From: Bacteroidaceae bacterium
GTDB lineage: Bacteria; Bacteroidota; Bacteroidia; Bacteroidales; Bacteroidaceae
Direction: 5' to 3'
DNA: 64,000 bases
Assembly: GCA_017525235.1 (NCBI GenBank)
Contig: JAFXTC010000040.1
Span: 1 to 64,000, forward strand
In this document: positions 9,382-27,643 of the stretch, piece after piece
Layout: the number at the start of each line of letters is the position of its first letter
How positions within the stretch are numbered: position 1 is the stretch's first letter
Translations under genes and position numbers: made by a program
The notes under the pieces: generated by a model
The model's database searches: none
What the model saw: only the letters and a program-made list of their open reading frames with translations
What the model was told of the DNA's origin: nothing

Positions 9382-11007
9382 TTACACTTTTTCTATTTTT
9401 GGTCCTATTACTAATTTTCCATCCAGAGTCTTACTCTCTGCATAATCTTCTTCGAACTCTGGTTCCACATTAATTGTCAAACTTCCCTTAAATCTCTTGT
9501 GTTTGGTCGAGATTTCATAAGGCAAGATGATTTGTTTGGGATAGCAATCCTCATATATAGGATAGTTATCGTATTGTTTGTACAGGAAAGGTAACTCTAC
9601 ATAAAGCAGCGGCATTCCTTTGCTAGACTCTGCATTTACATCGCCAGCATTACACCAATAACGGGCATCATCTATGGAGTAGTACTCGCTATGTGCAATG
9701 ATATTAATAAGTTCAATCCCAGTATTTTTATAATTACTCTCACAGAAACGGATACCATTATCTGCTTTGATTGAGACCTTTACACTTTCCAATGCATCAC
9801 CACAATTGTTGAACCGTAACTGTACCTGACAGATAGCATGATTCGTCTCACGTGAAATAGGCTTTTGAACAGTTGCCTGGGCTTGCTGTTTTGGAGAATA
9901 CTGGGCAGCAACGGCATTCAACGCTGCTGATCCAAAAGACATCAAGTCACTGACACTATAAGCCTTCCTGTTTTGCGGTTGCACCTTAGGTGTTGGTGCA
10001 GAATAGTATGTAGCAACTAACTTAGGATGGATAGTGAATTCCTGAGATCCGTCTTGAAAACATAAACAACATGGTTGGTTCTGAATTGCAACAGTATCGG
10101 ATGCTAAAGCGATAGCCTCTAAGAACTGTTTTCTAGGCGTGTTCCAATGAACTGGTGTGATCATTGGCTTTCCTAAGCTATTACATATGACTTCTGCCAG
10201 ATGGTCTAAAGAGTCTCCATTATCAATCTTAGCTGCTTTATCAAGGTGTATCAACCACCCCAGCTTATCAAACTCAACTCCTGGCAGAACAATCTGTATT
10301 GGAGTCTTACCTAAAGCCCAAGCAGCCCCCACTTCGTTCATACACACCTCAGATTTCTTATAATTGTTTGATATCATAGCAAAGAACACTGGTGCCTGTT
10401 CTATGTTATCCTTGATATACTGAGGGATGTTTACACCCGGTGGCACGCCAGTACTTTCAAATGATGTGCATATGATGTTGTTATCTTGCAGTCCTAAAGC
10501 CTCTTTAAGGATGATATTCTTAAACGGCTCTATGAATGGAGCATCTTTCGAGGCATGACTGATAAACACCTTGGTGGACTTCGCTATTTTTTCTTTTTCC
10601 ATTTTCTCCACCACATTCCCATTGTCATGGAAATGAATATCTAAACGCTCCAAGAAAGAGTCTATAAGAGACAATCCTTTATTAACCTTTTTCTTAAGTT
10701 GTGGCAGTATCGGCTCTCTCTTAGAAACAGTAATTGCTACATAAGTATCCCAATCATAAACGTATTGGTCATCACGACCAAATTGTTTCTGCAAAAGTTC
10801 ATGGACATATGATTTCCACTGGGCAAACTTATTTTTAAACTCTTCAAGTTCTTCTTCTGGAACATAATACAAATCTTCTATACCAAACAAAGGCATGCCT
10901 TCACCCAAGTCATTTTGACTTTCATGCATATTTGAGATAAGAGAAAGGAGTGTATTCCCTCTTTCCTGCTGTTTAATCAATAGTTTTGAAAAATGTTCCT
11001 TATCCAT
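9382..11007 (-). CDS. TIR-domain protein with unknown N- and C-terminal domains
   Basis: TIR domain at about residues 145-285: KVFISHASKDAPF opens it, and KKSEVCMNEVGAAWALG carries the expected catalytic Glu (Glu225, in the CxxE position of NAD-cleaving TIRs). An acidic helical N-terminal region (1-140) precedes it. After the TIR a linker with Gln-rich sequence (QYSPKQQAQATVQ) leads to a beta-rich C-terminal half (about 380-541) with an Ig-like or sensor look. Bacterial TIR proteins usually degrade NAD+ or make cyclic-ADPR signals in phage defence; that role is inferred here. It stands alone, 10 bp downstream of a four-helix pseudogene. Confidence 0.8.
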   Translation of the reverse strand: MDKEHFSKLLIKQQERGNTLLSLISNMHESQNDLGEGMPLFGIEDLYYVPEEELEEFKNKFAQWKSYVHELLQKQFGRDDQYVYDWDTYVAITVSKREPILPQLKKKVNKGLSLIDSFLERLDIHFHDNGNVVEKMEKEKIAKSTKVFISHASKDAPFIEPFKNIILKEALGLQDNNIICTSFESTGVPPGVNIPQYIKDNIEQAPVFFAMISNNYKKSEVCMNEVGAAWALGKTPIQIVLPGVEFDKLGWLIHLDKAAKIDNGDSLDHLAEVICNSLGKPMITPVHWNTPRKQFLEAIALASDTVAIQNQPCCLCFQDGSQEFTIHPKLVATYYSAPTPKVQPQNRKAYSVSDLMSFGSAALNAVAAQYSPKQQAQATVQKPISRETNHAICQVQLRFNNCGDALESVKVSIKADNGIRFCESNYKNTGIELINIIAHSEYYSIDDARYWCNAGDVNAESSKGMPLLYVELPFLYKQYDNYPIYEDCYPKQIILPYEISTKHKRFKGSLTINVEPEFEEDYAESKTLDGKLVIGPKIEKV

Positions 11008-12544: not shown

Positions 12545-13345
12545 TTACCTCAAATAAGAGTATTCATCTTCCAAGTAATCAATATACACCTGCTCACTGG
12601 AAGAAATCTTGTTGATTCCTGCCTTGGACTTCTGCCAGGTGTCATGAAGATGATTCTTGATGTGTTGCTCTTCCTTCAGCTGATACCGTAGCTTGTACTG
12701 CTCTGCCTGACAATGCCAGTAGTCTACAATTTCAAGTACCGCATCAAAGTCCTTTGCAGCTATCTTGCTACCAAGGTCTTTGTCAACAGACGCCATATTG
12801 GTAATGGCTTGATATGGCATACTGGCTTGAGATTGGAGCAGGTTTTCCAACTCTTCTGGTGAAAGAGCAACCCAACCTTTAGCATCTGGGTATTCCTGCG
12901 ACGTTGCGAACATCCATTTCTTAGCCTCTTCTGCTACATCTTTACGAAACACAAACACATTCTCCTCATCCACGCGCACTGCCGTTCCTATAGCTGCCCT
13001 AGAATGGTTTATCTTGCCAAGAAGTTTCTTGTGACGAAGGTGCTTGGTGCTGTCGTAGTCCATTCGCAGTTCCAACAACACCATGCGGTTGTTCACAGCT
13101 CGGTTGTTGCTGTAGTCGGCAACACCTACCATAGCATCCATCGTCATGTCGCGGTCGGCAATGCTACGATCAACCTCAAACTGGTCTATATCTATACCTT
13201 CAATTTCAGGGCGAGACTGGAAGTAAGTGTCGTGCTTATAGTCCTTCAAGGATATGACATAAAGAGCTCTATGATATTTAGCATACAGGGCGTGCCCCTG
13301 AAGCACGGCATTGTCACATACCAGATTCGTTGCTCGGCTCACCAT
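12545..13345 (-). CDS. Partner protein overlapping the AAA ATPase gene
   Basis: Not recognised by family. The N-terminal 100 residues are beta-rich with MVLLELRMDY after VADYSNNRAVN, which could be the D...ExR/K strand of a divergent PD-(D/E)XK or other nuclease, but this is weak. The C-terminal 80 residues are helical and charged. It overlaps the ATPase gene by 32 bases in another frame, showing a strict pair. In AAA15/21-type systems the second gene is normally the effector, so an effector role is inferred. Confidence 0.65.
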   Translation of the reverse strand: MVSRATNLVCDNAVLQGHALYAKYHRALYVISLKDYKHDTYFQSRPEIEGIDIDQFEVDRSIADRDMTMDAMVGVADYSNNRAVNNRMVLLELRMDYDSTKHLRHKKLLGKINHSRAAIGTAVRVDEENVFVFRKDVAEEAKKWMFATSQEYPDAKGWVALSPEELENLLQSQASMPYQAITNMASVDKDLGSKIAAKDFDAVLEIVDYWHCQAEQYKLRYQLKEEQHIKNHLHDTWQKSKAGINKISSSEQVYIDYLEDEYSYLR

Positions 13346-14651
13346 AATCCTGTATCCTGCTAGTTGCTATATTAAATGATCGGAAAATCTCACTGATGCT
13401 GCCACCAAGGTCGCGATATTCAAACTGATAACCACCTTCCTGTGGGTAAGCCTGATAGAAATGTGTATTATCTATCAGACCTTCTATTTCCGCAACCTTC
13501 TGTAGGGCAGCCACCATGTCAGGGTTGTGGCTGGCCACCATCACTTTCACTCCGAGGTCTTTGTTGAGTAATACAAGGAGATGTGCGAACTCAAATATCC
13601 ACTTCGGATGCAAATGTGCCTCCGGCTCATCAATAAGCAGCAAGGTACGCTCATTAAGGTATCCGTTCTCAACCAGTTTCTGTATATAGGCAAAGGTTTT
13701 CATACCTGTTGCCGTATCCTCAAGTCTAATGTTTAAATTGTCACCTTTGCGTATATAGTGCAACTCAGTACTATTGTAGAACGACTGCTGAAGTTTCACT
13801 TCACCACCTATAAGCTGACGTATACGGATAAGCAATTTAACGGCATTGGCTTCTAAAGCTACTGGTTGCCCTTTCATCATGGTACGTAGGTCCTGCCAAA
13901 AAATGCTGTCTGACATTACACTGCCAAAATTTAGTGCCATAGGTGTATCAACATATATAGCTCTGTCAAGGGCCAGAAGACTTCCCAATTCATTTTTGCG
14001 GAGTAGTTTTACCCCATCTTCCGAAAGCTGTACTCTTTGTGGCTCGCTGTCCGTAACACGGTAGGCTGCATGTATTAAATCGAACAAACGTTCTACAGAT
14101 CGTTCTTCAAGGTTATGATGGAACTCACCCAAAAATGCCTCTGCGTCTTTCAGCCTATCTGACACAAATGTATTTATTGCAGACTGCACATCGCCGTCGT
14201 TTTGGATGTTCAACTGAAGGTAGCGATTCATACGCTGTATGCGAAACTCCGATCTGTTATCGACAAGATACCTATTCAGAGCTTCATTTAGCATCATCAT
14301 AGCATCCTCGAAAAGTTGCATTAACTGTTGTACGGAGTTCTCTTCATAATACCCGACTGAATGTATACGTGTACTAATTTCAGTGAATTCAGTTGCAAAC
14401 CCATCGGAATAGCGGCTAAGCTCACGAGCGATGGAGCGCCCCTGACGGAGTATGCTCTCTAGTTGTTCCTTCAGTTCATGGAATAACAGTTCCTCAAAAC
14501 GAGAGGAAGTGTTGACAAGATAGTACAGCCAACGCGAAAGCGTACTCTTTCCACAGCCATTGTCACCTGCAAGTACAGTGATACCATCAATTGTTATCTC
14601 TGCTTGCTTGATGGCATGGTAGTCATAAAGAGTGTATTTATAAGTACTCAT
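13314..14651 (-). CDS. AAA (ABC/SMC-like) ATPase of a two-gene defence-type pair
   Basis: Walker A AGDNGCGKST at residues 28-37, Walker B LLLIDEPEAHLHP in the C-terminal third, followed by VMVASHNPDM (H-loop/switch). This is the OLD/AAA15-AAA21 type ATPase found in many phage-defence systems. The middle is long helical sequence (insert about residues 60-220). There is no fused TOPRIM or HNH. It is probably a sensor or assembly platform for the overlapping partner gene. No exact named system fits: PARIS and Septu have recognisable TOPRIM or HNH partners, and this one does not. Confidence 0.75.
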   Translation of the reverse strand: MSTYKYTLYDYHAIKQAEITIDGITVLAGDNGCGKSTLSRWLYYLVNTSSRFEELLFHELKEQLESILRQGRSIARELSRYSDGFATEFTEISTRIHSVGYYEENSVQQLMQLFEDAMMMLNEALNRYLVDNRSEFRIQRMNRYLQLNIQNDGDVQSAINTFVSDRLKDAEAFLGEFHHNLEERSVERLFDLIHAAYRVTDSEPQRVQLSEDGVKLLRKNELGSLLALDRAIYVDTPMALNFGSVMSDSIFWQDLRTMMKGQPVALEANAVKLLIRIRQLIGGEVKLQQSFYNSTELHYIRKGDNLNIRLEDTATGMKTFAYIQKLVENGYLNERTLLLIDEPEAHLHPKWIFEFAHLLVLLNKDLGVKVMVASHNPDMVAALQKVAEIEGLIDNTHFYQAYPQEGGYQFEYRDLGGSISEIFRSFNIATSRIQDYGEPSNESGM

Positions 14652-14786: not shown

Positions 14787-16810
14787 CTATACCAGTCCCA
14801 ATTTATGGAAGAATATCTGGTTACGCATCTTTGCATCTGCAATAACTTTCTTATAGCTCTTTATCTCCACATATGCATTGAAGTCCTTAAGATCGCCAAA
14901 ATAACCTTCGCCATCAGGAGCTATTGATAAACTGCCCGTCATTTTTGCAAACTCCTCAATCTTCTTTGCAATATCACATACAATATACACGTAGACAGGT
15001 GTCCGTTTCGAGTCTACATCTATTTTCTCTAATCCGTCTGGCATTTCATACTTGCCATCCAATATCTTTTGAGCGTATCGTAGCGCCTGCATGATTGGAT
15101 TCTCATCATCGGGATAATTCGTTCTCTTCGGTCGTTTAAACTCAACTATCACGATAGGTGAAGTGATAACATTATCTCCGTTGCGGAAAAACTTACCCTC
15201 TTCATAAAACAAAGCCAAATCGGGTTCTTTATGATCAACTTTTGAAATGACCTTGTCTGATGCAATAAACTGAGTGAAGTTGAACCTCTCATCAAGTAAC
15301 CAAAGATTATTAGACTCATAGTCAACTTCGCGATCTGTTTTAACCATTGGGAAGAAAAGATTATGCATCTCACTTTCTTTATGAGCCTTCCCATTTTCCA
15401 TTCTTCTTCTTAACTCATCATATAGTTCAATGACCTTCATACGCTGGCACACATAGTGAGCAAGGTCATTCTTCTGACTCTCGGTGACCAATTCAAGGAT
15501 GTGGTTAACATCTTCCTCCATTTGAGCGACATCAATTTCTTCCTCTTCTTCCTCGCTCTTGGTCATATAATCGTTTATTGCAATTCTCGCCTTCTGCTCT
15601 TTCTCAAATTTCATCTTCTGGAAACGCATTTCCAAATCGAATTCTGAAATATCAACAGGAATAGAATCCATATCCATATCCTTGAGCAATGTCTTATTCC
15701 ACGGGGCTTGCGAAAAAACGTAATGCTCTACCTGCTCTTTTTTCCTATTGAATTTCTCTTGGATTACGCCTGAGAAGAGTTCTTTGGCAACAGACGATGC
15801 TTCCTTGTAAATCATCTTTTCAGATAACTCATAGAATGCATTTGGAGCCTCTTTATCAAAATTGAACCCATCACGTTCTGTTGTAACATTTTCATCTAAG
15901 TATTCACCCAGAACGTAGGCCTTGACCATAAAATTCTTCTGCACTCCTTTCTCGGTAATCTCACTCATTGTTTCCTTGAACTCTGGAACAAAAGTATGGA
16001 GAGAGGCTTCAGTTACTTCTCTTTTGTTTGCAGTGAGACAGATTTTATTTGTAATTGCAGAATAGTATATCTTATAAACCTTTACTGTAAACTGGTATGT
16101 TCTATCTTTCCCCGAAACTTCTATTTGCTGGTCTTGTCCTATTTGCTGAATATCGGATGTTGGTCCCACGTAATTGTTCAATATGACTGAATCGGTTCCG
16201 TCTTCTTCCTCGATAGAAATGACCGGGGTATGCGGCCCACCAGTTGCAAAGTACACAAGCAAGCGTTCAACAAGCTTTCTTGCTATAACATCAACACCTT
16301 TATCCAGATCCTTATTCTTAATAGAGGATAGATGTATGGTAGTTCCCGTTTGATGCTCTGCACCATCTAAAAGATCATTTGTTTCATTTTCAATAATTTC
16401 ATTGGCATGGCCAAATGTGAAACACCTCTTGAAAAATGATTCGCCATCAGCATAGACGCTCTCTACAAAAACATGATTAAAGTACTTCAAGAACATGAAA
16501 CGGCCAAAACCCTTACCGCCAATGTCCATCTTATGACCGCTTCGGTAGGTATCAAATGACTCTTTGTTGGCTTCAGTAAAGCCCTCACCGTTGTCTATGA
16601 TATCAATAGCTATAAATCCCCTTTAACTGGAGTATCCTCTAGCCCCATATCCTGGTTCCCATCCCTTTTTAGAACAATCCTAATGCGTCCGTCAGTTCGG
16701 GAGTTGCCTATGGCCTCAATAGAATTGCACACGGCTTCAATGACTGGAGTCAAACTTGTTGACCTAGTCTTGATATCACGGACAATTCTATCAATGTTAA
16801 TTTTACTCAT
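14787..16810 (-). pseudogene. GHKL (HSP90/MutL-type) ATPase with C-terminal PD-(D/E)XK-like domain, split by a frameshift
   Basis: The first frame (16810 to 16610) gives the ATPase start with PVIEAVCNSIEAIG (N-box Asn/Glu region) and stops after DTPVKGDL. In another frame the sequence continues IAIDIIDNGEGFTEANKES and then MDIGGKGFGRFMFLKYF, the DxGxG and glycine lid of GHKL ATPases. One extra G in the GGGG run at about 16620 would give a single 674-residue protein. Near the C-terminus, EPDLALFYEEG and IVIVEFKRPKR form a PD...ExK nuclease-like core. So it resembles an ATP-gated nuclease of a defence kind. Loss of one G would inactivate it unless it varies in phase or is a sequencing error. 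Confidence 0.7.
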
Positions 16811-16943: not shown

Positions 16944-17204
16944 CTATTCCTTGTTAATCATGCCTGCAATTCCAAAAGCCAACAATCCGAGAGCACCTAA
17001 TCCTGCAAGGCATGTGTATTTAATCATGTTGTCTCTATTCTGAGCCAATTCACATGCATTCACCTGAGCCGGGAAATCCTTTTGTAACTCCTTTCCATAA
17101 GTATACAGATACCTATACCGAGCCATCTGCCCGATATTAAGGAATGTTTTCAGACTCAACTTCGTCAACTCCTCAACCTCATTTGTTTTCCTCCTATCCA
17201 TCAT
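16944..17204 (-). CDS. Small tail-anchored membrane protein
   Basis: 86 residues, unrecognised. The first 60 residues are charged and helical (MMDRRKTNEVEELTKLS); a single hydrophobic span near the end (about 65-83, CLAGLGALGLLAFGIAGM) suggests a C-terminal anchor. It follows the next gene by 22 bp and is the last member of the methyltransferase-kinase-protease run. Confidence 0.6.
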   Translation of the reverse strand: MMDRRKTNEVEELTKLSLKTFLNIGQMARYRYLYTYGKELQKDFPAQVNACELAQNRDNMIKYTCLAGLGALGLLAFGIAGMINKE

Positions 17205-17226
17205 CTCTGTATTATTCTTATTTCAA

Positions 17227-17691
17227 CTAATCAAATAACTTCCTCGCCTCTTCCTCACTCTGCGTAAGGTTCAACAGTATATCATGCTTGGTAAGCTTAG
17301 TCTTGCCATTGCACAAATCTCGTCGCATTTCGAGCACGAAATCCAAGAAGTAGGAAAACTGTTCCTTATTATTGTCCTCTTTGGTTGCAAGCAACCATAT
17401 ATTAAACGCCTTGAAAACCTTGTCCGACCCGTACATAAAGATGTCTCTCTTGATGTCTATCATCCTATTCATCATCTCTTCGTTGTTGGTAGCACGATTG
17501 GCTTTAGCATCTTTCAATACAGAATAGAACATCTTCACAGCATCAGCATACGCATTATATTTCTTCTCAGACAGTTGCTCCCTCATCGTCCGCAACTTCT
17601 CAGTCTGCCACGCTATGATAATACCAGCCACCGCCACAATCGCCGGCACCAACCCCGTCAGTATTGCTATCAGAACTTCCTGAGACATCAT
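17227..17691 (-). CDS. Small membrane protein with N-terminal span and helical domain
   Basis: 154 residues, unrecognised. The hydrophobic segment at about residues 5-27 (VLIAILTGLVPAIVAVAGII) is followed by helical, charged sequence likely to lie in the cytoplasm (EKLRTMREQLSEKKYN). It starts 6 bp after the 52-residue gene. With the 86-residue protein it supplies two opposite membrane anchors to the operon. Confidence 0.65.
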   Translation of the reverse strand: MMSQEVLIAILTGLVPAIVAVAGIIIAWQTEKLRTMREQLSEKKYNAYADAVKMFYSVLKDAKANRATNNEEMMNRMIDIKRDIFMYGSDKVFKAFNIWLLATKEDNNKEQFSYFLDFVLEMRRDLCNGKTKLTKHDILLNLTQSEEEARKLFD

Positions 17692-17697
17692 TTATCA

Positions 17698-17856
17698 TTA
17701 AAACTCGTTCCTTATTTTAAAACTCTCAGAATAAGGTCTTGCTGAAGATTGAGAACTATACATAGTTACACAATATGTGCCTGTAGTAACTTGAATGTTG
17801 GGACTAAATCCAGTTTTGGATGTTTCCTGCTTTTGGTCTAAATAATTATTATTCAT
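17698..17856 (-). CDS. 52-residue protein overlapping the protease gene
   Basis: ATG at 17856 lies inside the last codons of the Clp-fold protease gene (8-bp overlap), and the stop is 6 bp before the next gene. It starts MNNNYLDQKQETSKTGFS and is polar with beta-prone sequence (IQVTTGTYCVTMYSS). Unrecognised, but the tight overlap on both sides makes it a credible small gene. Confidence 0.55.
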   Translation of the reverse strand: MNNNYLDQKQETSKTGFSPNIQVTTGTYCVTMYSSQSSARPYSESFKIRNEF

Positions 17857-18864
17857 GCTTCCAACCCTCAAAAATTCTATTGTCTTGTATTTGATTCTGA
17901 ACAGGTACCGGCCCCATTGGTCCTATGCCTCCTCCTACTTTTGTCATAGACAAATCACCTTCGCTTAGATATACATCTGTTCCATTATAAAGAGATTCTA
18001 TAATCCCCCTCCGGAATGAATAGTGATAGGGATTTTGCTGATTCAGCAATATATTAGGATTATAAGGACTCTCTAATTCCAATTCCTTACTTATATCATC
18101 GTAAACAGCCTTAATTACTTTATAGAAGTCCATGGATGGTTTTTCCACATGCAGACCCAGATGCTCAACAGCCTCGTCTCTATGAATCGAATAATCGTGG
18201 CTACCAGATTCAATACACAAGAACTTAATTATTTCGTCTTCCTGGTCAGGTGTCAGTTTATGCCATTTCATCAACTTTCTTGCAAGCATTTGAATTTGTG
18301 AGCGTGTGCGAAATACTTGACCAAGTGTCATTGGGTGAATCTTGTCTGAAAGGCTAAGCAATATGTCAGCCATACAGCGCTGGTCTGTAATAGCAAAATT
18401 AGTTTTAGCCATTTCAATATAAGCATTTACGTATTCGACGCTTACCGGCAATTTTGCATTTGGGTCATTAACACCTGGCAACATTGGATTAAATGGTCCA
18501 TTTACACTTGGGTCAATAGGTCCCAGCGTAGCCTGTTTTGTCATTACAATGTTATCTGAACCAAGGCAAATGAGAGTACCTGAACTAAAGCAGTTGGCGG
18601 GAATGATTACCTCAAAACTTTTACAGAAACTTCGGATTAAATTAACTAAGCTCCATGCAGCCAAAGTATTACCACCATTGGTATATAGATACAAAGTAAT
18701 CTTCTGGGGATCTCCTAACTTATCCAAATGTTCGATAAACTTAGGCAAAATATCATTCGCGATTTGAGTCTCTAAGCCACTTCTAGTACTGGTTACATAG
18801 CAATCAGCTTTGACTCCCTTTGACGCTCTATTTCTTTATATAATTCTATTCTTTCTGTTCGCAT
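17849..18864 (-). pseudogene. SDH-type Clp-fold serine protease, frameshifted near its N-terminus
   Basis: The reading frame from 18748 gives a Clp/crotonase-fold protease-like protein: YLYTNGGNTLAAWSLVN (like the ClpP and SppA substrate loop), ANCFSSGTLICLGSD (probable nucleophile Ser) and LGPIDP, as in the SDH_sah/SppA-like family. Its true start is upstream at 18864 (MRTERIELYKEIERQRES). That frame ends after KLIAM, while the other frame carries YVTSTRSGLETQIANDILPK straight into the main ORF. Adding one base near 18798 restores a 338-residue protein. It has no signal peptide, so it is probably cytoplasmic. It sits 87 bp downstream of the receiver gene. Confidence 0.7.
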
Positions 18865-18951
18865 AATAATACATCGAAAAAGCCGAGGGCTCCGTACTTG
18901 TTAAGGATGGTTATAATTAATTTGTACAGAAACTTATCAAGACGAAATCTA

Positions 18952-20364
18952 CTACTTATGTCTTTTAGGGCCCTTACACTTAACCTTTATATTAAATCTT
19001 TTCTTACAGTTTTCAACTATAGCCTTGTTCTCCTTAAGATTACAAATTGTAGCATTCAAACGCTCATTCTCTTCTTGTAACGTTCTTATTTGAATATTTT
19101 TTGTTTTTTCACCTGCAGCTTTCACACATACTGCATCTTCAGGCAAACTCGGTAGAGCATGTCTGTGCATATATAAGGAATACCTCTCCGTAACATGAGA
19201 AATGAATGGTTCAAGTATGCGACCTTTCCTAAGATGTTTATACTTATCAAAACCTGCCACCTCAACGTCTTTGAATTTGATGGAATAGTATGAATTATCC
19301 ACTATTGGTCCAATGATAGCCTCCACATCTAGCTCCTCAAATTTATGGTACGTGGAATTGTATTTCTCCTTTTGAGCCCCCTCCGTTAATTTCCTACCAT
19401 AGAGTAGATAAATATTCTTTTGTGGATCATCCCTAAATACACAATCACAAGTCGGTCTAATATTTATAGCAATCTCTCTATTTTCAGGATTGCTATGCAT
19501 CCCTTGTTCGTTTACAGTATCTGGTTCAAAAACATATACATCTCCGACAACTGCCATGGCATCATTGTCAACCTTCATGTATCTTTGAGCCTGCAAAACT
19601 TTTAATAGTTCCTTTTTGTCAAACTCTGCCTCTTCGTTTGTAATAATAGCAGTGTCAAATTCAACTGGCATCATCCTTGACGCTATATTCTGCATCAATA
19701 GGGCGGATACTTCATCTGCTTCATCTACACTATCATCACACGCACTATTCCAAATTATTTGGGGCCAATATTGTGAACCTTGTGAAAAATCCTTTAAAAG
19801 ACCTTCTTTTGCCTTATTAAAGGATAATGACCATTCTTTTAGTACATAAACAGCAGATTTACTTCTCACCCATTCATCTAAAGCTTCAAACAATTTGAAA
19901 TTGCCCGCATCATTGAACAACTCCTCTTTTTTCTTTATAAATACAGGCGATTGGTTCAATATATCTTCTGCGATTCCGTTTTCTATTAAACAGTCCTTTA
20001 CATCATCCTTGTTACTAAATATGAAAATAGGTACGGATGTTTCCATTATCAATCGACTTACAAAGGAAGAGTTTTTTCTATTGTTACTGATAATCACATC
20101 ATCTGCAACCTTAACTGTTACGATTTGTCCCTCTATCAAACTTAGCGTTTGATATAACTGCCAATCCAAAAGGATAAAACTCGCATTTCTGAAATGTTCG
20201 ATTGTTTCTCCATCAGGCAAAGATTTAAACTTGACCAACGGCATCTTGGCGTTTTCTAGTGAAGAAACGATGTCAATTATTTTGTCGTTAATCTCAGTAT
20301 TATCAAGCATGTCATCAATAACGACACCAATCCCTGAAAATAATCTCTTAATATCCATCTTCAT
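18952..20364 (-). CDS. Response-regulator-type receiver protein with large C-terminal domain
   Basis: The N-terminal ~145 residues keep the receiver residues: acidic pair Asp17-Asp18 (VVIDDML), phospho-acceptor Asp67 (FILLDWQLY), Ser117 (VPIFIFSN) and Lys144 (PVFIKKK). The remaining 320 residues are not a known DNA-binding domain; they contain CDCVFRDDPQKNIYLLYGR and end in a coiled segment and a Lys-rich tail. The gene overlaps the kinase gene by 17 bases, so it is almost certainly its partner. Output is unknown; without a DNA-binding domain it may act on proteins, for instance the protease encoded next. Confidence 0.75.
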   Translation of the reverse strand: MKMDIKRLFSGIGVVIDDMLDNTEINDKIIDIVSSLENAKMPLVKFKSLPDGETIEHFRNASFILLDWQLYQTLSLIEGQIVTVKVADDVIISNNRKNSSFVSRLIMETSVPIFIFSNKDDVKDCLIENGIAEDILNQSPVFIKKKEELFNDAGNFKLFEALDEWVRSKSAVYVLKEWSLSFNKAKEGLLKDFSQGSQYWPQIIWNSACDDSVDEADEVSALLMQNIASRMMPVEFDTAIITNEEAEFDKKELLKVLQAQRYMKVDNDAMAVVGDVYVFEPDTVNEQGMHSNPENREIAINIRPTCDCVFRDDPQKNIYLLYGRKLTEGAQKEKYNSTYHKFEELDVEAIIGPIVDNSYYSIKFKDVEVAGFDKYKHLRKGRILEPFISHVTERYSLYMHRHALPSLPEDAVCVKAAGEKTKNIQIRTLQEENERLNATICNLKENKAIVENCKKRFNIKVKCKGPKRHK

Positions 20365-22609
20365 CGTCCTTTACAAATGACACCACGAAGTTTGCTCCGC
20401 TCAGCTTCTTTTCTTGTCTAATATCTGCGAGATGTATGGAATAATCGTTATTGTTTAAGATACTCCTTATGATGTACAAACCAAGTCCTCTGCCTTCTGA
20501 GCCTTTTCCTGAGAAGAAAGGTTCAAATATATAACCTTTGTCATCGTCCCGAACTCCCGGACCATTATCAGAGAAAATCATCTGATTAGAATTGCCATCA
20601 AGCGTAACCAGTATTGTCTTATCACTTCTGTCTATCGTGTTTAGCCAGTAGATAGAATTATCTATCAAATTAATCAACACTTGTAAGACCTCAGCCATCG
20701 TGCATTTGGCAATGACAGGAGAACCTATTTCTGTTACTTCAACATTAATTGGACCATCCTTTAAACTGTTTTGGTAAATACTTATCACCTTATCAAGCAT
20801 ATCTTTTACACGGATATTCTTTCTTGATTGTTTGGAAGAAACAAAAAGTTTCTGCATATCGGACAACTGGTTTTTCACATAAGTGAACATACCATATAGT
20901 TTCGTAAGCTCCTCTAATGCAGAATGGCAGTCGAAATCAGGGTCTTGGCTTGCTTTCAATAATCTAGACAGTGTGTCAATACCCTTTCCATACATCAACA
21001 TTATGTCATGACTCGCAGTTTCAACCGAAAGGCCAACAGCAGCTAATGCCTCTGTACGTTGAGCTCTTTCCAATAGGTATTTACGCTCTGCTTTATAAGT
21101 CTTTTCAAGTTGACTTACCAATTCTTTTGCCCTACCATTATCTTTAAAGTAATCCTTAAGGTCATTTATTTCTTTTTCTACCCTTTGGGCCTTTACTATT
21201 TCTATATCCTTCTGTTTCTTCTCATTATCTAAATAGGTCTTATAGCTCTCTGTCCGAAGATAAGATAGGAATGCCTTAATAATACAAATAAAGTCTGCCG
21301 TGAAATCTTCATCATCAATCAAGCCTTCACGATTAGTCTTATCTTTCAAATGAGGATTTCCTATCTTGGTAATCTTAATACGCCCTACGACCTGATCATT
21401 ACTAAAAAAACCACCTGCACTTATTATACCTCGACTAACATCTATCTGCAACCAATCATCAGTTGCGTCACCATATGGTAAAACTCTGATTCCATCTCGC
21501 AGTAAATAAATTCTATGCTCTTTGATTAGCTTTTTGGCTTCTAATGATAGTTCGTATTTGTTGCCTTTGGCATTGAAATCAAATATATAAAAATCGAATT
21601 CAAAGTCACCAAATTTTGAAACGGGTCTAACATTATTTCCCTCGCCAAAGTGTTTTTTATAAATACGCTGCCCTCGCATTTCAGGTCCATTTGCACTAAG
21701 GACTTTGGGTATATCGTTTTCAATGAAATACAAATTTTGCGAGTCGGAATCGTATCTGCCACTCGTTATCCTAATAACTGTCTTGTTATCAAATAGATTT
21801 CTGAGGAAAGTTTGGTCTGTCTTATCGTCACCAGTAAGGTTTTCAACATCACGATATAGCCCTACTGTCATTTTTTCCTCTTCAGAGCGAGTCTTCATAT
21901 TTGAATCATCAAGTATGATTTCATCAAATAGACTTCCAAATCTTATGATACTCTCTTTAACGTCATCAACCTTTCTTTGATTCCATTTTCCCCTTAAATT
22001 ACTAATCTCTATTCGTGTTCCATGAACATTTTTCCATCCCTCGAACAATATATTGTTCACTACAACATCCTGCCCTGTAAAAACGACTGGATCGTTGGTC
22101 TCAAGATTAAATTGCAATGAGTCAAGGAAAATACCCTCTTTCTTATCGTCGTCATTAGTAAAAAAATTGTCGTCAAAATCCTCAAAATTCAAATGTACCG
22201 TATACTCGACGTTTTGTTCTGATTCATTTTCAGGTCGGGTGGTCAATTTTACAGTCCTGCCCAATTTTAACATGGCATAACGTCCTATTCCTTTCTCACC
22301 TTGTATTATCCTGTGTTTTTTGGAGGTTCTATCTTTATCCACCTTATTGGGAGTAGCAGGATTCATCCAGGAACCAGATATAATGTCTTTTGTCATTCCT
22401 ATTCCATTATCCTCAATGACAATTGTAGAAGATGGTAATACCTTCCAATTATCACCAAACCCTTCAAACGACACCTTTACCCAGTCAGCATCAGCATCGT
22501 AGGAGTTCTTCATCAATTCAGTAACGGCAATCTGTTCATTCTTGATGAGTTGGTCACCAAGCATTGTCAGTAGTCGTGCGTATGGTCTAATCTTTAATGT
22601 TTCTCCCAT
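20348..22609 (-). CDS. Histidine kinase with an extra N-terminal HSP90/MORC-like ATPase
   Basis: Two GHKL ATPase domains in one protein. N-terminal: ELMKNSYDAD (Asn35), IEDNGIGM (67-72) and QGEKGIGRYAM (103-113), as in HSP90/MORC/MutL ATPases. C-terminal: a helical region with ASHDIMLMY (candidate phospho-His534), then LINLIDNSIYWL (Asn651), FSDNGPGV and EGRGLGLYI, the N, G1 and G2 boxes of a sensor kinase. There is no membrane span and no PAS/GAF domain, so it is a soluble kinase whose N-terminal ATPase clamp probably serves as sensor. It overlaps both neighbours, methyltransferase and receiver. Confidence 0.8.
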   Translation of the reverse strand: MGETLKIRPYARLLTMLGDQLIKNEQIAVTELMKNSYDADADWVKVSFEGFGDNWKVLPSSTIVIEDNGIGMTKDIISGSWMNPATPNKVDKDRTSKKHRIIQGEKGIGRYAMLKLGRTVKLTTRPENESEQNVEYTVHLNFEDFDDNFFTNDDDKKEGIFLDSLQFNLETNDPVVFTGQDVVVNNILFEGWKNVHGTRIEISNLRGKWNQRKVDDVKESIIRFGSLFDEIILDDSNMKTRSEEEKMTVGLYRDVENLTGDDKTDQTFLRNLFDNKTVIRITSGRYDSDSQNLYFIENDIPKVLSANGPEMRGQRIYKKHFGEGNNVRPVSKFGDFEFDFYIFDFNAKGNKYELSLEAKKLIKEHRIYLLRDGIRVLPYGDATDDWLQIDVSRGIISAGGFFSNDQVVGRIKITKIGNPHLKDKTNREGLIDDEDFTADFICIIKAFLSYLRTESYKTYLDNEKKQKDIEIVKAQRVEKEINDLKDYFKDNGRAKELVSQLEKTYKAERKYLLERAQRTEALAAVGLSVETASHDIMLMYGKGIDTLSRLLKASQDPDFDCHSALEELTKLYGMFTYVKNQLSDMQKLFVSSKQSRKNIRVKDMLDKVISIYQNSLKDGPINVEVTEIGSPVIAKCTMAEVLQVLINLIDNSIYWLNTIDRSDKTILVTLDGNSNQMIFSDNGPGVRDDDKGYIFEPFFSGKGSEGRGLGLYIIRSILNNNDYSIHLADIRQEKKLSGANFVVSFVKDDEDGY

Positions 22610-23874
22610 AATGGTTTCCTCCCAAAAATGATAAACTCCTCAGAATAAATCTTACGACTATTCTTATCCGTCGTGAACTTTCCTATAGCGTCACGATAAG
22701 GTGTCAGTATCTTATTTGATATCTTTCGTCTCTCAGCCTCTACTTCGGTAAAGCCTTCATTTAGCAATGATTCAAGCAAATGGCGAGCATTGTCTATCTT
22801 TACATTCTTGTATTCTGTATTTCCTATTACAAATAGAACTGCTCCTCCAGGTTTTATCATCTGATATACCTTCTTGACTGCATTCTGCATGTCAATGTAG
22901 TACTGAGATACGGAACGACACTTCGACTTGTCAACAGCATACAGCTTGAAGACTATATCCTGACCGGTATTGTTCAGTTCTTTTAGATGCTCTGATAACT
23001 TGTTCTCACCATGAAGGCTACCTATTGTACCTTCACGGAATGTTCGATAATCGTCTGTATAGCCTAACCACAGCGTTGAAAGCTGATGTAAGTCGGCATA
23101 TTCGTATGAAGTTACATAAGGCGGACTAGTCACCAACAGATCTACAAAAGGATGTTCCACAGAATTTGTAAGACAATTAGCAGTATGTATATCTGCAAAA
23201 CTCCTTTTTATCTCATTCTGATCATTTGCTTTCCGCATCATCTTTACCTGAGTGCTAAATGCATTTAGAACATTATGAGGTTTCTTTATCGGGTCAACCT
23301 GCGGTTTGATGGACTTGGTAAGCCAACGAGAACAGGATTTCAAAATGTTGGAGAATGCACATAAGAAGAATTCACGGTATGTCTCTTCTGTTACCACTCG
23401 TTCAATGGCATGCTTCAACCTGCTTAAATCCTCTATCTGCTCTTGTAAGAACCAATACTTTATGCGCTCATTATTTGCAACAGCATCTGATTCATCAAAA
23501 GAAAGCAGAACGAACGTGTTAATAATGTCTGCATAATAATGAGCTATCTTTTTATCATCATAATGGCGACTCTTTGTTCTTGCTATCAAGGTAGCCACTG
23601 GGTTTATATCACAACCCCAAAAGTGGCGGTTTGCCTTAACTGTCTCATATGCTACGGTTCCACAACCACAAAAAATATCAGCTACGGTATCAACCTTTAT
23701 GTCCTTTGATTCTGCATACTGAATAGCCTTGGTGGTAATAAAGGCTGGAAATTTTGCAGGGTACGCATGGATACGGTGCATGAGGTTTTCATGCACATCA
23801 CGGCCATCCCAACTATCGTTGATGGGCAGTGTATCCAATTCTACTGTAGAATAATTATCTATTGTTACTTCCAT
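22594..23874 (-). CDS. DNA methyltransferase, SPPY (amino-methyltransferase) type
   Basis: DIFCGCGTVAYE (residues 66-77) is the AdoMet-binding motif I, WGCDINP follows as motif II, and TSPPYVTSYEY (249-259) is catalytic motif IV; SPPY suggests N4-cytosine, less often N6-adenine, methylation. MHRIHAYPAKFPAFI near the N-terminus is typical of this family. A target-recognition region may lie between about 110 and 240. No classical restriction endonuclease gene is beside it; instead it overlaps the kinase gene by 16 bases, suggesting it provides self-marking for this operon or is regulated with it. Confidence 0.85.
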   Translation of the reverse strand: MEVTIDNYSTVELDTLPINDSWDGRDVHENLMHRIHAYPAKFPAFITTKAIQYAESKDIKVDTVADIFCGCGTVAYETVKANRHFWGCDINPVATLIARTKSRHYDDKKIAHYYADIINTFVLLSFDESDAVANNERIKYWFLQEQIEDLSRLKHAIERVVTEETYREFFLCAFSNILKSCSRWLTKSIKPQVDPIKKPHNVLNAFSTQVKMMRKANDQNEIKRSFADIHTANCLTNSVEHPFVDLLVTSPPYVTSYEYADLHQLSTLWLGYTDDYRTFREGTIGSLHGENKLSEHLKELNNTGQDIVFKLYAVDKSKCRSVSQYYIDMQNAVKKVYQMIKPGGAVLFVIGNTEYKNVKIDNARHLLESLLNEGFTEVEAERRKISNKILTPYRDAIGKFTTDKNSRKIYSEEFIIFGRKPLWEKH

Positions 23875-24231: not shown

Positions 24232-24390
24232 TTAATTGAGGTTGGTACAAATATCTGAGTGGTTCACACTGGTCTTGATTCGCTGATAGACTTTGCGAGC
24301 AGCAAAAAACCCGAATTCGCTAAAGACATAGGCAATCTCCGCATCCAACTCGTTCTGCGCACCCCGGAGCCACTCAATCTCAAAAACCAT
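24232..24390 (-). pseudogene. ParE/RelE-type toxin, C-terminally truncated
   Basis: 52 residues starting MVFEIEWLRGAQNELDAE, then IAYVFSEFGFFAARKVYQRI, the N-terminal helices of ParE-type toxins. The usual ~95-100 residues are cut short and end HSDICTNLN, so the catalytic/gyrase-binding end is missing. The ATG overlaps the stop of the upstream small gene by 11 bases, the normal antitoxin-toxin layout. Confidence 0.65.
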
Positions 24391-24640
24391 ACTTGGTGCG
24401 GATTGAATCGAACACTACCTGATTGGGGACAAAATCCTCTTCTCCGGTTTCAGCTCGACGAATGCGCTCGGTAAGGATGGCGTGCATCTCTTCGAGCGTG
24501 TGAGCGTTGGGTGAGACAGACTTCAAATGAGGAGTCATTGTCTCGACTCGTGTGCGACGGGATGCCCGTACGTTGTAAGCAACGGCGGGCTCGGCAGCCA
24601 TAATGGGGTGCTCTTCCTCTATATTGTATTTTTTACTCAT
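24380..24640 (-). CDS. Probable antitoxin of the broken ParE-type pair
   Basis: 86 residues, starting MSKKYNIEEEHPIMAAEPAVAY. Polar, with a basic middle (RASRRTRVE) and a helix (TLEEMHAILTERIRRAE). Not a clear member of a named antitoxin family; the assignment rests on its overlap with the ParE-like ORF and its size. It still reads as an intact gene although the toxin is truncated. A leader element lies upstream (24720-24900). Confidence 0.6.
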   Translation of the reverse strand: MSKKYNIEEEHPIMAAEPAVAYNVRASRRTRVETMTPHLKSVSPNAHTLEEMHAILTERIRRAETGEEDFVPNQVVFDSIRTKYGF

Positions 24641-27567: not shown

Positions 27568-27643
27568 CGCGGGGTGGAGCAGTTGGTAGCTCGCCAGGCT
27601 CATAACCTGGAGGTCGCTCGTTCGAGTCGGGCCCCCGCAACCA
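27568..27643 (+). tRNA. tRNA-fMet (CAT), initiator
   Basis: 76-nt cloverleaf: acceptor cGCGGGG with CCCCGCa, so position 1 (C) faces A72, the unpaired initiator signature. Anticodon loop CTCATAA, TpsiC arm GTTCGAGTC, and CCA encoded. Own promoter and terminator. Confidence 0.93.

What the first reader, a model, noticed from the sequence alone, without database searches (positions are those of the whole stretch)
16944..23874. Methyltransferase - two-ATPase histidine kinase - receiver - Clp-fold protease - small-protein operon as a candidate undescribed defence or stress system
Seven genes in one minus-strand run, three junctions overlapping (16, 17 and 8 bp) and others only 6 to 87 bp apart. 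Parts: an SPPY DNA methyltransferase, a soluble kinase with an HSP90/MORC-like ATPase fused in front of a normal histidine-kinase core, a receiver protein with all phospho-transfer residues but no DNA-binding domain, an SDH/Clp-fold protease, a 52-residue protein, and two small membrane proteins with spans at opposite ends. The layout suggests DNA modification or phage-DNA sensing by the ATPase clamp, a phospho-relay to the receiver, and a protease or membrane effector. Detocs also uses a kinase-receiver relay, but I see no methyltransferase or protease in what I know of it.
Basis: partly seen in the sequence, partly recalled or inferred. Interest (0 to 1): 0.9.

Follow-up and report, generated by a model that had tools for sequence, protein, structure and literature searches.

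The report
DNA-methylase-linked MORC-type kinase relay
Three neighbouring bacterial genes, a DNA-marking enzyme, a DNA-clamp-like sensor kinase and its relay partner, recur together in distant bacteria and on phage-like DNA and may act as a self/non-self DNA alarm, while the protease beside them looks like a separate passenger.

Summary
The seven-gene run is real (junction lengths confirmed), but it is not one system. Genes 1-3 (N4/N6-type DNA methyltransferase, double-ATPase histidine kinase, receiver protein) form a conserved, mostly overlapping core, found complete at 14 loci including the window: the window's phylum, an Allorhizobium plasmid and viral-collection contigs. Both ATP sites, the phospho-His, receiver D17/D67/K146 and the methylase motifs are invariant in 14 of 14. 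The SDH/Clp-fold protease was found in none of the other 13 fetched loci. Its relatives occur without the core: in E. coli in 47 of 5,426 genomes, among phage genes in all five contexts viewed. The window's protease is frame-broken at its 5' end.

The core is a divergent sister of the published HEF_HK/Response_reg_2 "two-component-like" elements tied to restriction-modification: full-length kinase homology (hhalign E 9e-116) and a shared receiver output domain (E 7e-8). It is missed by the two defining Pfam models and has an N4/N6-type rather than the usual C5 methyltransferase. Best mechanism: methylation marks self, a MORC-like clamp reads DNA, His534-to-Asp67 transfer switches an uncharacterised output domain. 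Defence is inferred, not shown. New variant of a known kind.

The parts
22594..23874 (-). DNA methyltransferase, 426 aa; motif FCGCG at residue 68, SPPY at residue 250 (motif I before IV; class reading recalled); N4-cytosine or N6-adenine type
   Evidence: Pfam N6_N4_Mtase 8e-15; PADLOC MTase_II 1e-40; profile hits M.PvuII N4-cytosine methylase 1boo, E 8e-8; motifs invariant in 14 of 14
20348..22609 (-). Soluble histidine kinase, 753 aa: MORC/HSP90-like GHKL (about 1-150), variable region (151-330), S5-like (331-450, by homology and recall), coiled coil, DHp with His534, HATPase_c (601-753)
   Evidence: Pfam; PDB profile hits to HtpG (N-terminal part) and histidine kinases; full-length hhalign to HEF_HK proteins P 100, E 9e-116; catalytic residues 14 of 14
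18952..20364 (-). Receiver protein, 470 aa: divergent receiver (D17/D18, D67, S117, K146) plus C-terminal output domain (about 266-412, motif GD..NIRPxCDC..RY..Y.QR..LP.IP) and a C-terminal tail absent or different in most relatives
   Evidence: output domain shared with Response_reg_2 proteins, hhalign P 94.6, E 6.8e-8
17849..18748 (-). SDH/Clp-fold serine protease, main ORF (299 aa); 5' part (about 18793-18864) is in another frame. Read here as a separate passenger, not part of the core
   Evidence: Pfam SDH_protease 2e-13; 52% identical to an E. coli phage-borne protease over the shared part; frame break seen
17698..17856 (-). 52-aa S/T/N/Q-rich protein overlapping the protease stop by 8 bp; possible partner of the protease
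   Evidence: the E. coli relative has an unannotated 59-aa S/T/N/Q-rich ORF with the same 8-bp overlap; sequence similarity between the two is slight
17227..17691 (-). 154-aa protein with an N-terminal transmembrane-like span; no relatives found; not part of the core
   Evidence: KD maximum 2.70 at residue 8; no match in the other 140 of 141 family genomes searched
16944..17204 (-). 86-aa protein with a C-terminal transmembrane-like span; no family; not part of the core (relatives not searched by genome)
   Evidence: KD maximum 2.13 at residue 65; no Pfam hit over its cut-off, no PADLOC or NCBIfam hit

Best explanation
The unit is the three genes at 18952-23874. Shown: they form a conserved, closely coupled module of DNA methyltransferase, MORC-like-ATPase histidine kinase and receiver protein with a shared output domain; the catalytic residues are kept; the module is found on chromosomal contigs, a plasmid and viral-collection contigs; it is homologous to the HEF_HK/Response_reg_2 elements. 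Inferred: the methyltransferase marks a sequence in host DNA. The N-terminal GHKL-S5 part of the kinase dimerises around DNA in an ATP-dependent way, as MORC and MutL clamps do, and distinguishes DNA carrying the mark from foreign unmarked DNA, possibly through its fast-evolving residues 151-330. Clamp closure is passed through the coiled coil to His534, the phosphate goes to Asp67 of the receiver, and the phosphorylated receiver releases or activates its C-terminal output domain. That domain either acts itself or engages an exchangeable effector next door (an HNH nuclease in one relative). The result would be a restriction-like response to unmodified DNA in which the trigger is a phosphorelay rather than direct site recognition by a nuclease.
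For: Receiver-first searches recover the trio. Complete trios at 14 loci including the window: kinase/receiver junctions -17 to +4 bp in 14 of 14, methyltransferase/kinase -17 to +6 in 13 of 14. Both ATP sites, His534, receiver D17/D67/K146 and methylase SPPY invariant in 14 of 14. Kinase and receiver distances correlate at r 0.93, methyltransferase and kinase at 0.68, as expected if kinase and receiver co-evolve while the methylase can be exchanged. A C5 methyltransferase, homologous kinase and receiver stand together at 6 of 6 loci over the PF19192 cut-off and at L047, which is like them; an HNH-type gene lies within three genes at 4 of these 7 (L047, L050, L051, L053). An HNH_2 nuclease directly follows one trio (L016); L044 has a next gene with a weak HSDR_N_2 hit (E 0.06). 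Five complete trios are on IMG/VR viral contigs, one near a weak holin-family match. The window copy lies in a low-GC stretch with TIR and AAA defence-type genes.
Against: No experiment that I saw shows defence by this family or by the published HEF_HK elements. In 12 of the 14 loci listed no recognised nuclease or toxin directly follows the receiver, though several of those neighbours were not scanned. The output domain matched no solved structure by sequence, so the final step is unknown. The N-terminal part of the kinase does not track the methyltransferase more closely than the rest of the kinase does, which gives no help to the idea that it reads the methylase's mark. A linked regulator of restriction genes would give much the same genomic picture. 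Structure prediction could not be run.
Confidence: 0.5

Rival explanations
1. The kinase-receiver pair is a regulator: it senses DNA or nucleotide state and adjusts expression or activity of its methyltransferase and of neighbouring restriction enzymes, without being the defence itself.
For: This is the speculation of the paper describing the related domains (PMC8011034; parts 1-5 of 7 read). The receiver is a normal phospho-switch by its residues, and 12 of 14 loci have no recognised effector gene directly after it.
Against: No DNA-binding domain is recognised in the receiver. At most trios read no cognate nuclease was recognised that could be regulated (not every neighbour scanned). The same trio occurs on chromosomes, a plasmid and viral contigs.
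Confidence: 0.22
2. Phage or mobile-element function: the methyltransferase protects the element's DNA from host restriction and the relay controls lysogeny, superinfection or host response on the element's behalf.
For: Complete trios on five IMG/VR contigs, a conjugative Allorhizobium plasmid and a fecal scaffold filed as a phage; one trio lies near DUF5675 and a weak holin-family match.
Against: Also in bacterial contigs where no phage genes were evident by eye around the trio. Defence genes are often carried by phages, so location does not decide.
Confidence: 0.13
3. One reading: all seven genes, with the protease or membrane proteins as effector of the relay.
For: Same strand, short spacing, no clear terminator between receiver and protease.
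Against: No protease relative in the fetched DNA of the 13 other complete trios; protease relatives without the trio in E. coli and in five same-phylum genomes; protease frame-broken here; no relatives of the 154-aa protein in the family genomes searched.
Confidence: 0.04
4. Decaying island cargo: the genes are remnants without present function in this strain.
For: Two neighbouring genes are frame-broken: the protease and the GHKL gene at 14787-16810. The genome is a 69-contig assembly, 72.7% complete.
Against: The three core genes are full length with their catalytic residues; the L013 relative is 74-83% identical with the same -16/-17 junctions. The breaks may be assembly errors.
Confidence: 0.1

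Closest known systems
HEF_HK (PF19191) / Response_reg_2 (PF19192) two-component-like elements linked to restriction-modification (Bellieny-Rabelo et al. 2021, PMC8011034; abstract and parts 1-5 of 7 read)
   Same: Methyltransferase gene upstream of a soluble HATPase_c_3 + DHp + HATPase_c kinase next to a receiver protein; kinase homologous over 722 columns; receiver output domain homologous; one contig carries both versions (L023)
   Different: N4/N6-type rather than the usual C5 methyltransferase (but a figure legend of the paper names N6_N4_Mtase among neighbouring domains, so this is a weaker difference than it looks); no HEF_HK match in 8 of 8 kinases scanned and no receiver over the Response_reg_2 cut-off (2 of 14 weakly); HNH_2 directly after the receiver in only 1 of 14 loci
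paraMORC/MORC ATPases in restriction-modification systems (Iyer et al. 2008, PMC2292703, abstract and passages read)
   Same: GHKL ATPase of that superfamily in methyltransferase neighbourhoods
   Different: Here fused to a complete histidine-kinase core and paired with a receiver; no helicase among the seven genes
Detocs (recalled; paper not read)
   Same: Kinase-receiver phosphorelay proposed as an immune trigger
   Different: No methyltransferase in Detocs as I recall it; the kinase here has a MORC-like ATPase sensor; no Detocs-named PADLOC hit (whether the library holds Detocs was not checked)
Type II restriction-modification
   Same: DNA methyltransferase matching MTase_II profiles
   Different: No restriction endonuclease recognised among the seven genes
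Shedu with GHKL N-terminus / paraMORC3 (PMC12137116, passages read)
   Same: GHKL ATPase used in anti-phage defence, with mutation of the ATPase abolishing activity
   Different: That protein ends in a nuclease; here the output is a phosphorelay

Membership tests
HEF_HK/Response_reg_2 elements | Kinase with N-terminal HATPase_c_3 and C-terminal HATPase_c | tested here: met
   both in 8 of 8 kinases scanned
HEF_HK/Response_reg_2 elements | HEF_HK domain (PF19191) | tested here: not met
   No match at E<=1 in 8 of 8, although full-length profile-profile homology is strong
HEF_HK/Response_reg_2 elements | Response_reg_2 domain (PF19192) in the partner | tested here: not met
   Window protein no match; 2 of 14 receiver parts weakly, best E 0.012; hhalign of receiver parts P 67.7, E 4.9e-5
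HEF_HK/Response_reg_2 elements | Kinase and receiver genes adjacent | tested here: met
   14 of 14 complete loci
HEF_HK/Response_reg_2 elements | C-5 cytosine methyltransferase upstream (typical, not universal; N6_N4_Mtase also named in a figure legend) | tested here: not met
   N6_N4_Mtase instead; legend
HEF_HK/Response_reg_2 elements | HNH_2 or Vsr nuclease nearby (typical) | tested here: not met
   No HNH_2 in the window genome; Vsr not searched; HNH_2 directly after the receiver in 1 (L016) of the 14 loci listed
paraMORC ATPases | GHKL ATPase motifs with S5-type domain in a restriction-modification context | tested here: inconclusive
   GHKL residues 14 of 14 and a methyltransferase next door: met. 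The S5 domain is inferred only from alignment with HEF_HK proteins and recall
Type II restriction-modification | DNA methyltransferase | tested here: met
Type II restriction-modification | Cognate restriction endonuclease | tested here: not met
   None recognised among the seven genes
Detocs | Kinase, receiver and receiver-fused effector of the Detocs families (recalled) | tested here: inconclusive
   No Detocs-named hit in PADLOC 2.0.0; library content for Detocs not checked
Any anti-phage defence system | Shown to protect against phage | not testable with these tools

The most novel reading that the evidence does not exclude
A restriction system without a dedicated nuclease: methylation defines self, a MORC-type clamp kinase detects unmarked DNA, and a His-Asp phosphorelay fires an effector that is the receiver's own uncharacterised C-terminal domain. 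The family (N4/N6, C5 and further variants) would span at least two phyla and phages, with a branch overlooked by current domain models.
Probability: 0.27. Interest if true: 0.82.

Novelty: new variant of a known kind. Interest (0 to 1): 0.53.

Why it matters
If right, two-component signalling is used inside the cell to read the epigenetic state of DNA, and it gives bacterial MORC-like ATPases, whose role has been unclear, a defined output. The intact three-gene cassette is small, recurs in at least two phyla and on viral contigs, and can be tested in laboratory strains. It also shows that the published Pfam models miss a branch.

Tried and rejected
Seven-gene single system: rejected, because protease and 154-aa gene were not found with the core elsewhere. 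Transcription terminator between receiver and protease as proof of two operons: not found; a weak GAGCC/GGCTT hairpin is no better than shuffles. Named defence system by profile: the kinase gave one weak hit, PDC-M43B, on its generic part; gene 1 gave generic methyltransferase profiles; no NCBIfam hit shown reached its cut-off for the seven genes (for the kinase the best 25 of 57 were shown). Identity of the receiver output domain by PDB sequence profile: nothing significant. A standalone 184-aa protein beside another protease (L086) has a similar GDV..SHSCD pattern, but hhalign gives only P 4.8: a lead, not a result. Viral-contig scans with the five-sequence receiver alignment, the window kinase alone and the protease found no relatives; scans with the methyltransferase, kinase and receiver-domain alignments did. 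Specific coupling of methyltransferase and kinase-sensor evolution: not seen. Papers: ten searches. None of the listings or texts seen describes this trio branch, but the 2021 paper names N6_N4_Mtase among neighbours of its receiver genes in a figure legend, and most subscription papers are not held. On re-checking I lowered interest from 0.55 to 0.53 for that reason.
Full report
What is there. The window is contig C60 of a 2.6-Mb, 69-contig assembly (72.7% complete). Its nearest named relative for this locus is a rumen Prevotella assembly, so I infer a Prevotella-like Bacteroidota bacterium. The seven minus-strand ORFs at 16944-23874 and the stated junction lengths are confirmed. Pfam gives N6_N4_Mtase for gene 1, HATPase_c_3 plus HATPase_c for gene 2, nothing over a cut-off for gene 3 and SDH_protease for gene 4. 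The small genes have no family over a cut-off. The protease's start lies in another frame from its main ORF.

The conserved unit is three genes. Searching with the receiver protein or its alignment alone gave 14 non-window loci: 3 from 250 same-family genomes, 1 from the GTDB contig scan, 3 from 394 same-phylum genomes, 1 plasmid, 1 phage-collection scaffold and 5 from 373 same-order genomes. Eight carry the complete methyltransferase-kinase-receiver trio in that order (L013, L014, L015, L016, L021, L022, L024, L044). L023 has the kinase and the cut end of the methyltransferase at a contig start. L045 has a kinase piece without methyltransferase, with a Mutator transposase downstream. The L025 contig begins inside the receiver. 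L046 and L047 hold C5-methyltransferase versions. L048 is a short hit with a stop inside, probably spurious.

Viral contigs. Methyltransferase and kinase alignment queries gave 11 IMG/VR contigs: 5 have the complete trio (L063, L064, L065, L066, L068). The other 6 are a methyltransferase with a different HATPase_c_3 protein (L055), methyltransferase without the kinase or at a contig end (L060, L061, L062), a kinase at a contig end without receiver (L067), and a C5-like version with a protein that looks like Vsr by eye (L069). A receiver-domain query returned three of the same contigs again. With the window this makes 14 complete trios.

Coupling and integrity. In the 14 trios, kinase and receiver genes are -17 to +4 bp apart. 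Methyltransferase and kinase are -17 to +6 apart in 13; the fourteenth (-134, L015) probably reflects the start codon taken. Distances correlate between kinase and receiver (r 0.93) more than between methyltransferase and kinase (0.68) or receiver (0.62); 0 of 5000 permutations reached any of these. L014, for example, has a 77% identical methyltransferase but only 55% kinase and 35% receiver identity, which fits exchange of the methyltransferase. Both ATP sites, His534, receiver D17, D67 and K146, and the methylase FxGxG and SPPY motifs are invariant in 14 of 14; position 18 of the receiver is D in 11, N in 2 and E in 1. I tested whether the MORC part of the kinase follows the methyltransferase while the kinase core follows the receiver. 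It does not stand out, so that idea has no support here.

Relation to known systems. One contig, L023, carries our trio (methyltransferase cut) and, about 5 kb away, a C5 methyltransferase, a HEF_HK kinase and a Response_reg_2 protein, the elements described by Bellieny-Rabelo et al. (PMC8011034; abstract and parts 1-5 of 7 read). That paper reports 91.6% linkage of the two genes over 644 regions, C5 methylases upstream, and Vsr and HNH_2 nucleases nearby; a figure legend also names N6_N4_Mtase among neighbouring domains. Of 247 same-phylum genomes, 6 have a match over the PF19192 cut-off. All 6 loci, and L047, which is like them but was not scanned with that model, have C5 methyltransferase, kinase and receiver in order. 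The window kinase family aligns with their kinases over 722 columns (hhalign P 100, E 9e-116). The receivers share the C-terminal output domain (P 94.6, E 6.8e-8) and more weakly the receiver part (P 67.7, E 4.9e-5). Yet HEF_HK matches 0 of 8 of our kinases and Response_reg_2 only 2 of 14 receivers, at best E 0.012. The trio is therefore a sister branch, not a member by the published models.

The protease is a separate passenger. No protease relative was found in the fetched DNA (6-22 kb each) of the 13 other complete trios; 10 of the 13 have more than 1 kb after the receiver, the other three 338-572 bases. What follows the receiver varies: an FRG-domain protein one small gene away (L013), an HNH_2 nuclease (L016), a gene with a weak HSDR_N_2 hit (L044), unknown genes, or opposite-strand genes. 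Protease relatives lie elsewhere: an E. coli copy 52% identical over the shared part is in 47 of 5,426 E. coli genomes. In the five contexts viewed (L072 on a plasmid record, L092-L095 on chromosomes) it sits reversed between phage holin and antiterminator Q genes, followed by an unannotated 59-aa S/T/N/Q-rich ORF overlapping by 8 bp, as in the window. Five same-phylum genomes have the protease (L082-L086); four of these (L082, L083, L085, L086) also have a 68-91-aa ORF directly after it, L084 has none that is clear. These small ORFs are hardly alike in sequence, apart from the near-identical pair in L082 and L083, so a common partner is a guess. In the 13 protease loci tested, no methyltransferase or receiver of this kind was found, and one generic kinase hit (L082).

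Mechanism. Shown: module integrity, homology and occurrence on chromosomal, plasmid and viral-collection DNA. Inferred from the families: DNA marking by the methyltransferase, ATP-dependent clamping by the GHKL-S5 part, His534 to Asp67 transfer. Guess: that unmarked DNA is the trigger and that the response is defensive. The island setting (GC 36-41%, one kb at 45%, between 2 and 24 kb, against 43-50% from 25 to 40 kb; TIR and AAA genes) is consistent with defence but does not prove it.

Verdict. Observation confirmed; interpretation partly supported; new variant of a known kind for which I saw no experimental test; interest 0.53.

Noticed in passing
window 14787-16529 and 16610-16810 (-): A second GHKL-type ATPase gene (by eye) in two frames, broken between about 16530 and 16610, with a C-terminal D...IVIVEFKRP pattern that looks like a PD-(D/E)XK nuclease; no Pfam hit over a cut-off and no PADLOC hit for the larger piece. 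Possibly paraMORC3/Shedu-like.
   Followed up: partly
window 9382-11007 (-): TIR-domain protein matching the PADLOC spbK profile (E 1e-33).
   Followed up: no
window 12545-14651 (-): AAA_15/AAA_21 ATPase overlapping a 266-aa partner gene, similar to HEC-02A/AriA-type ATPases.
   Followed up: no
window 2000-24000: Low-GC stretch (36-41%, one kb at 45%) against 43-50% from 25 to 40 kb, with a tRNA-Met at 27568: probably an acquired defence island.
   Followed up: partly
L072 6875-8042; L092-L095: SDH Clp-fold protease plus unannotated 59-aa ORF in E. coli, reversed between phage holin and antiterminator Q genes in the five contexts viewed; protease in 47 of 5,426 genomes: a candidate two-gene prophage cargo of unknown function.
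   Followed up: partly
L055 10000-17200: Viral contig with a related methyltransferase followed by an 844-aa HATPase_c_3 protein, a C5-methyltransferase-like protein, a FokI-cleavage-domain protein and a protein that looks like Vsr by eye.
   Followed up: no
L086 8321-8872: Standalone 184-aa protein downstream of an SDH protease with a GDV...SHSCD...R pattern resembling the receiver output domain; similarity not significant (hhalign P 4.8).
   Followed up: partly
window 24232-24640 (-): Remnant of what looks like a toxin-antitoxin pair (52-aa RelE/ParE-like fragment after an 86-aa protein) just upstream of the trio, by eye.
   Followed up: no
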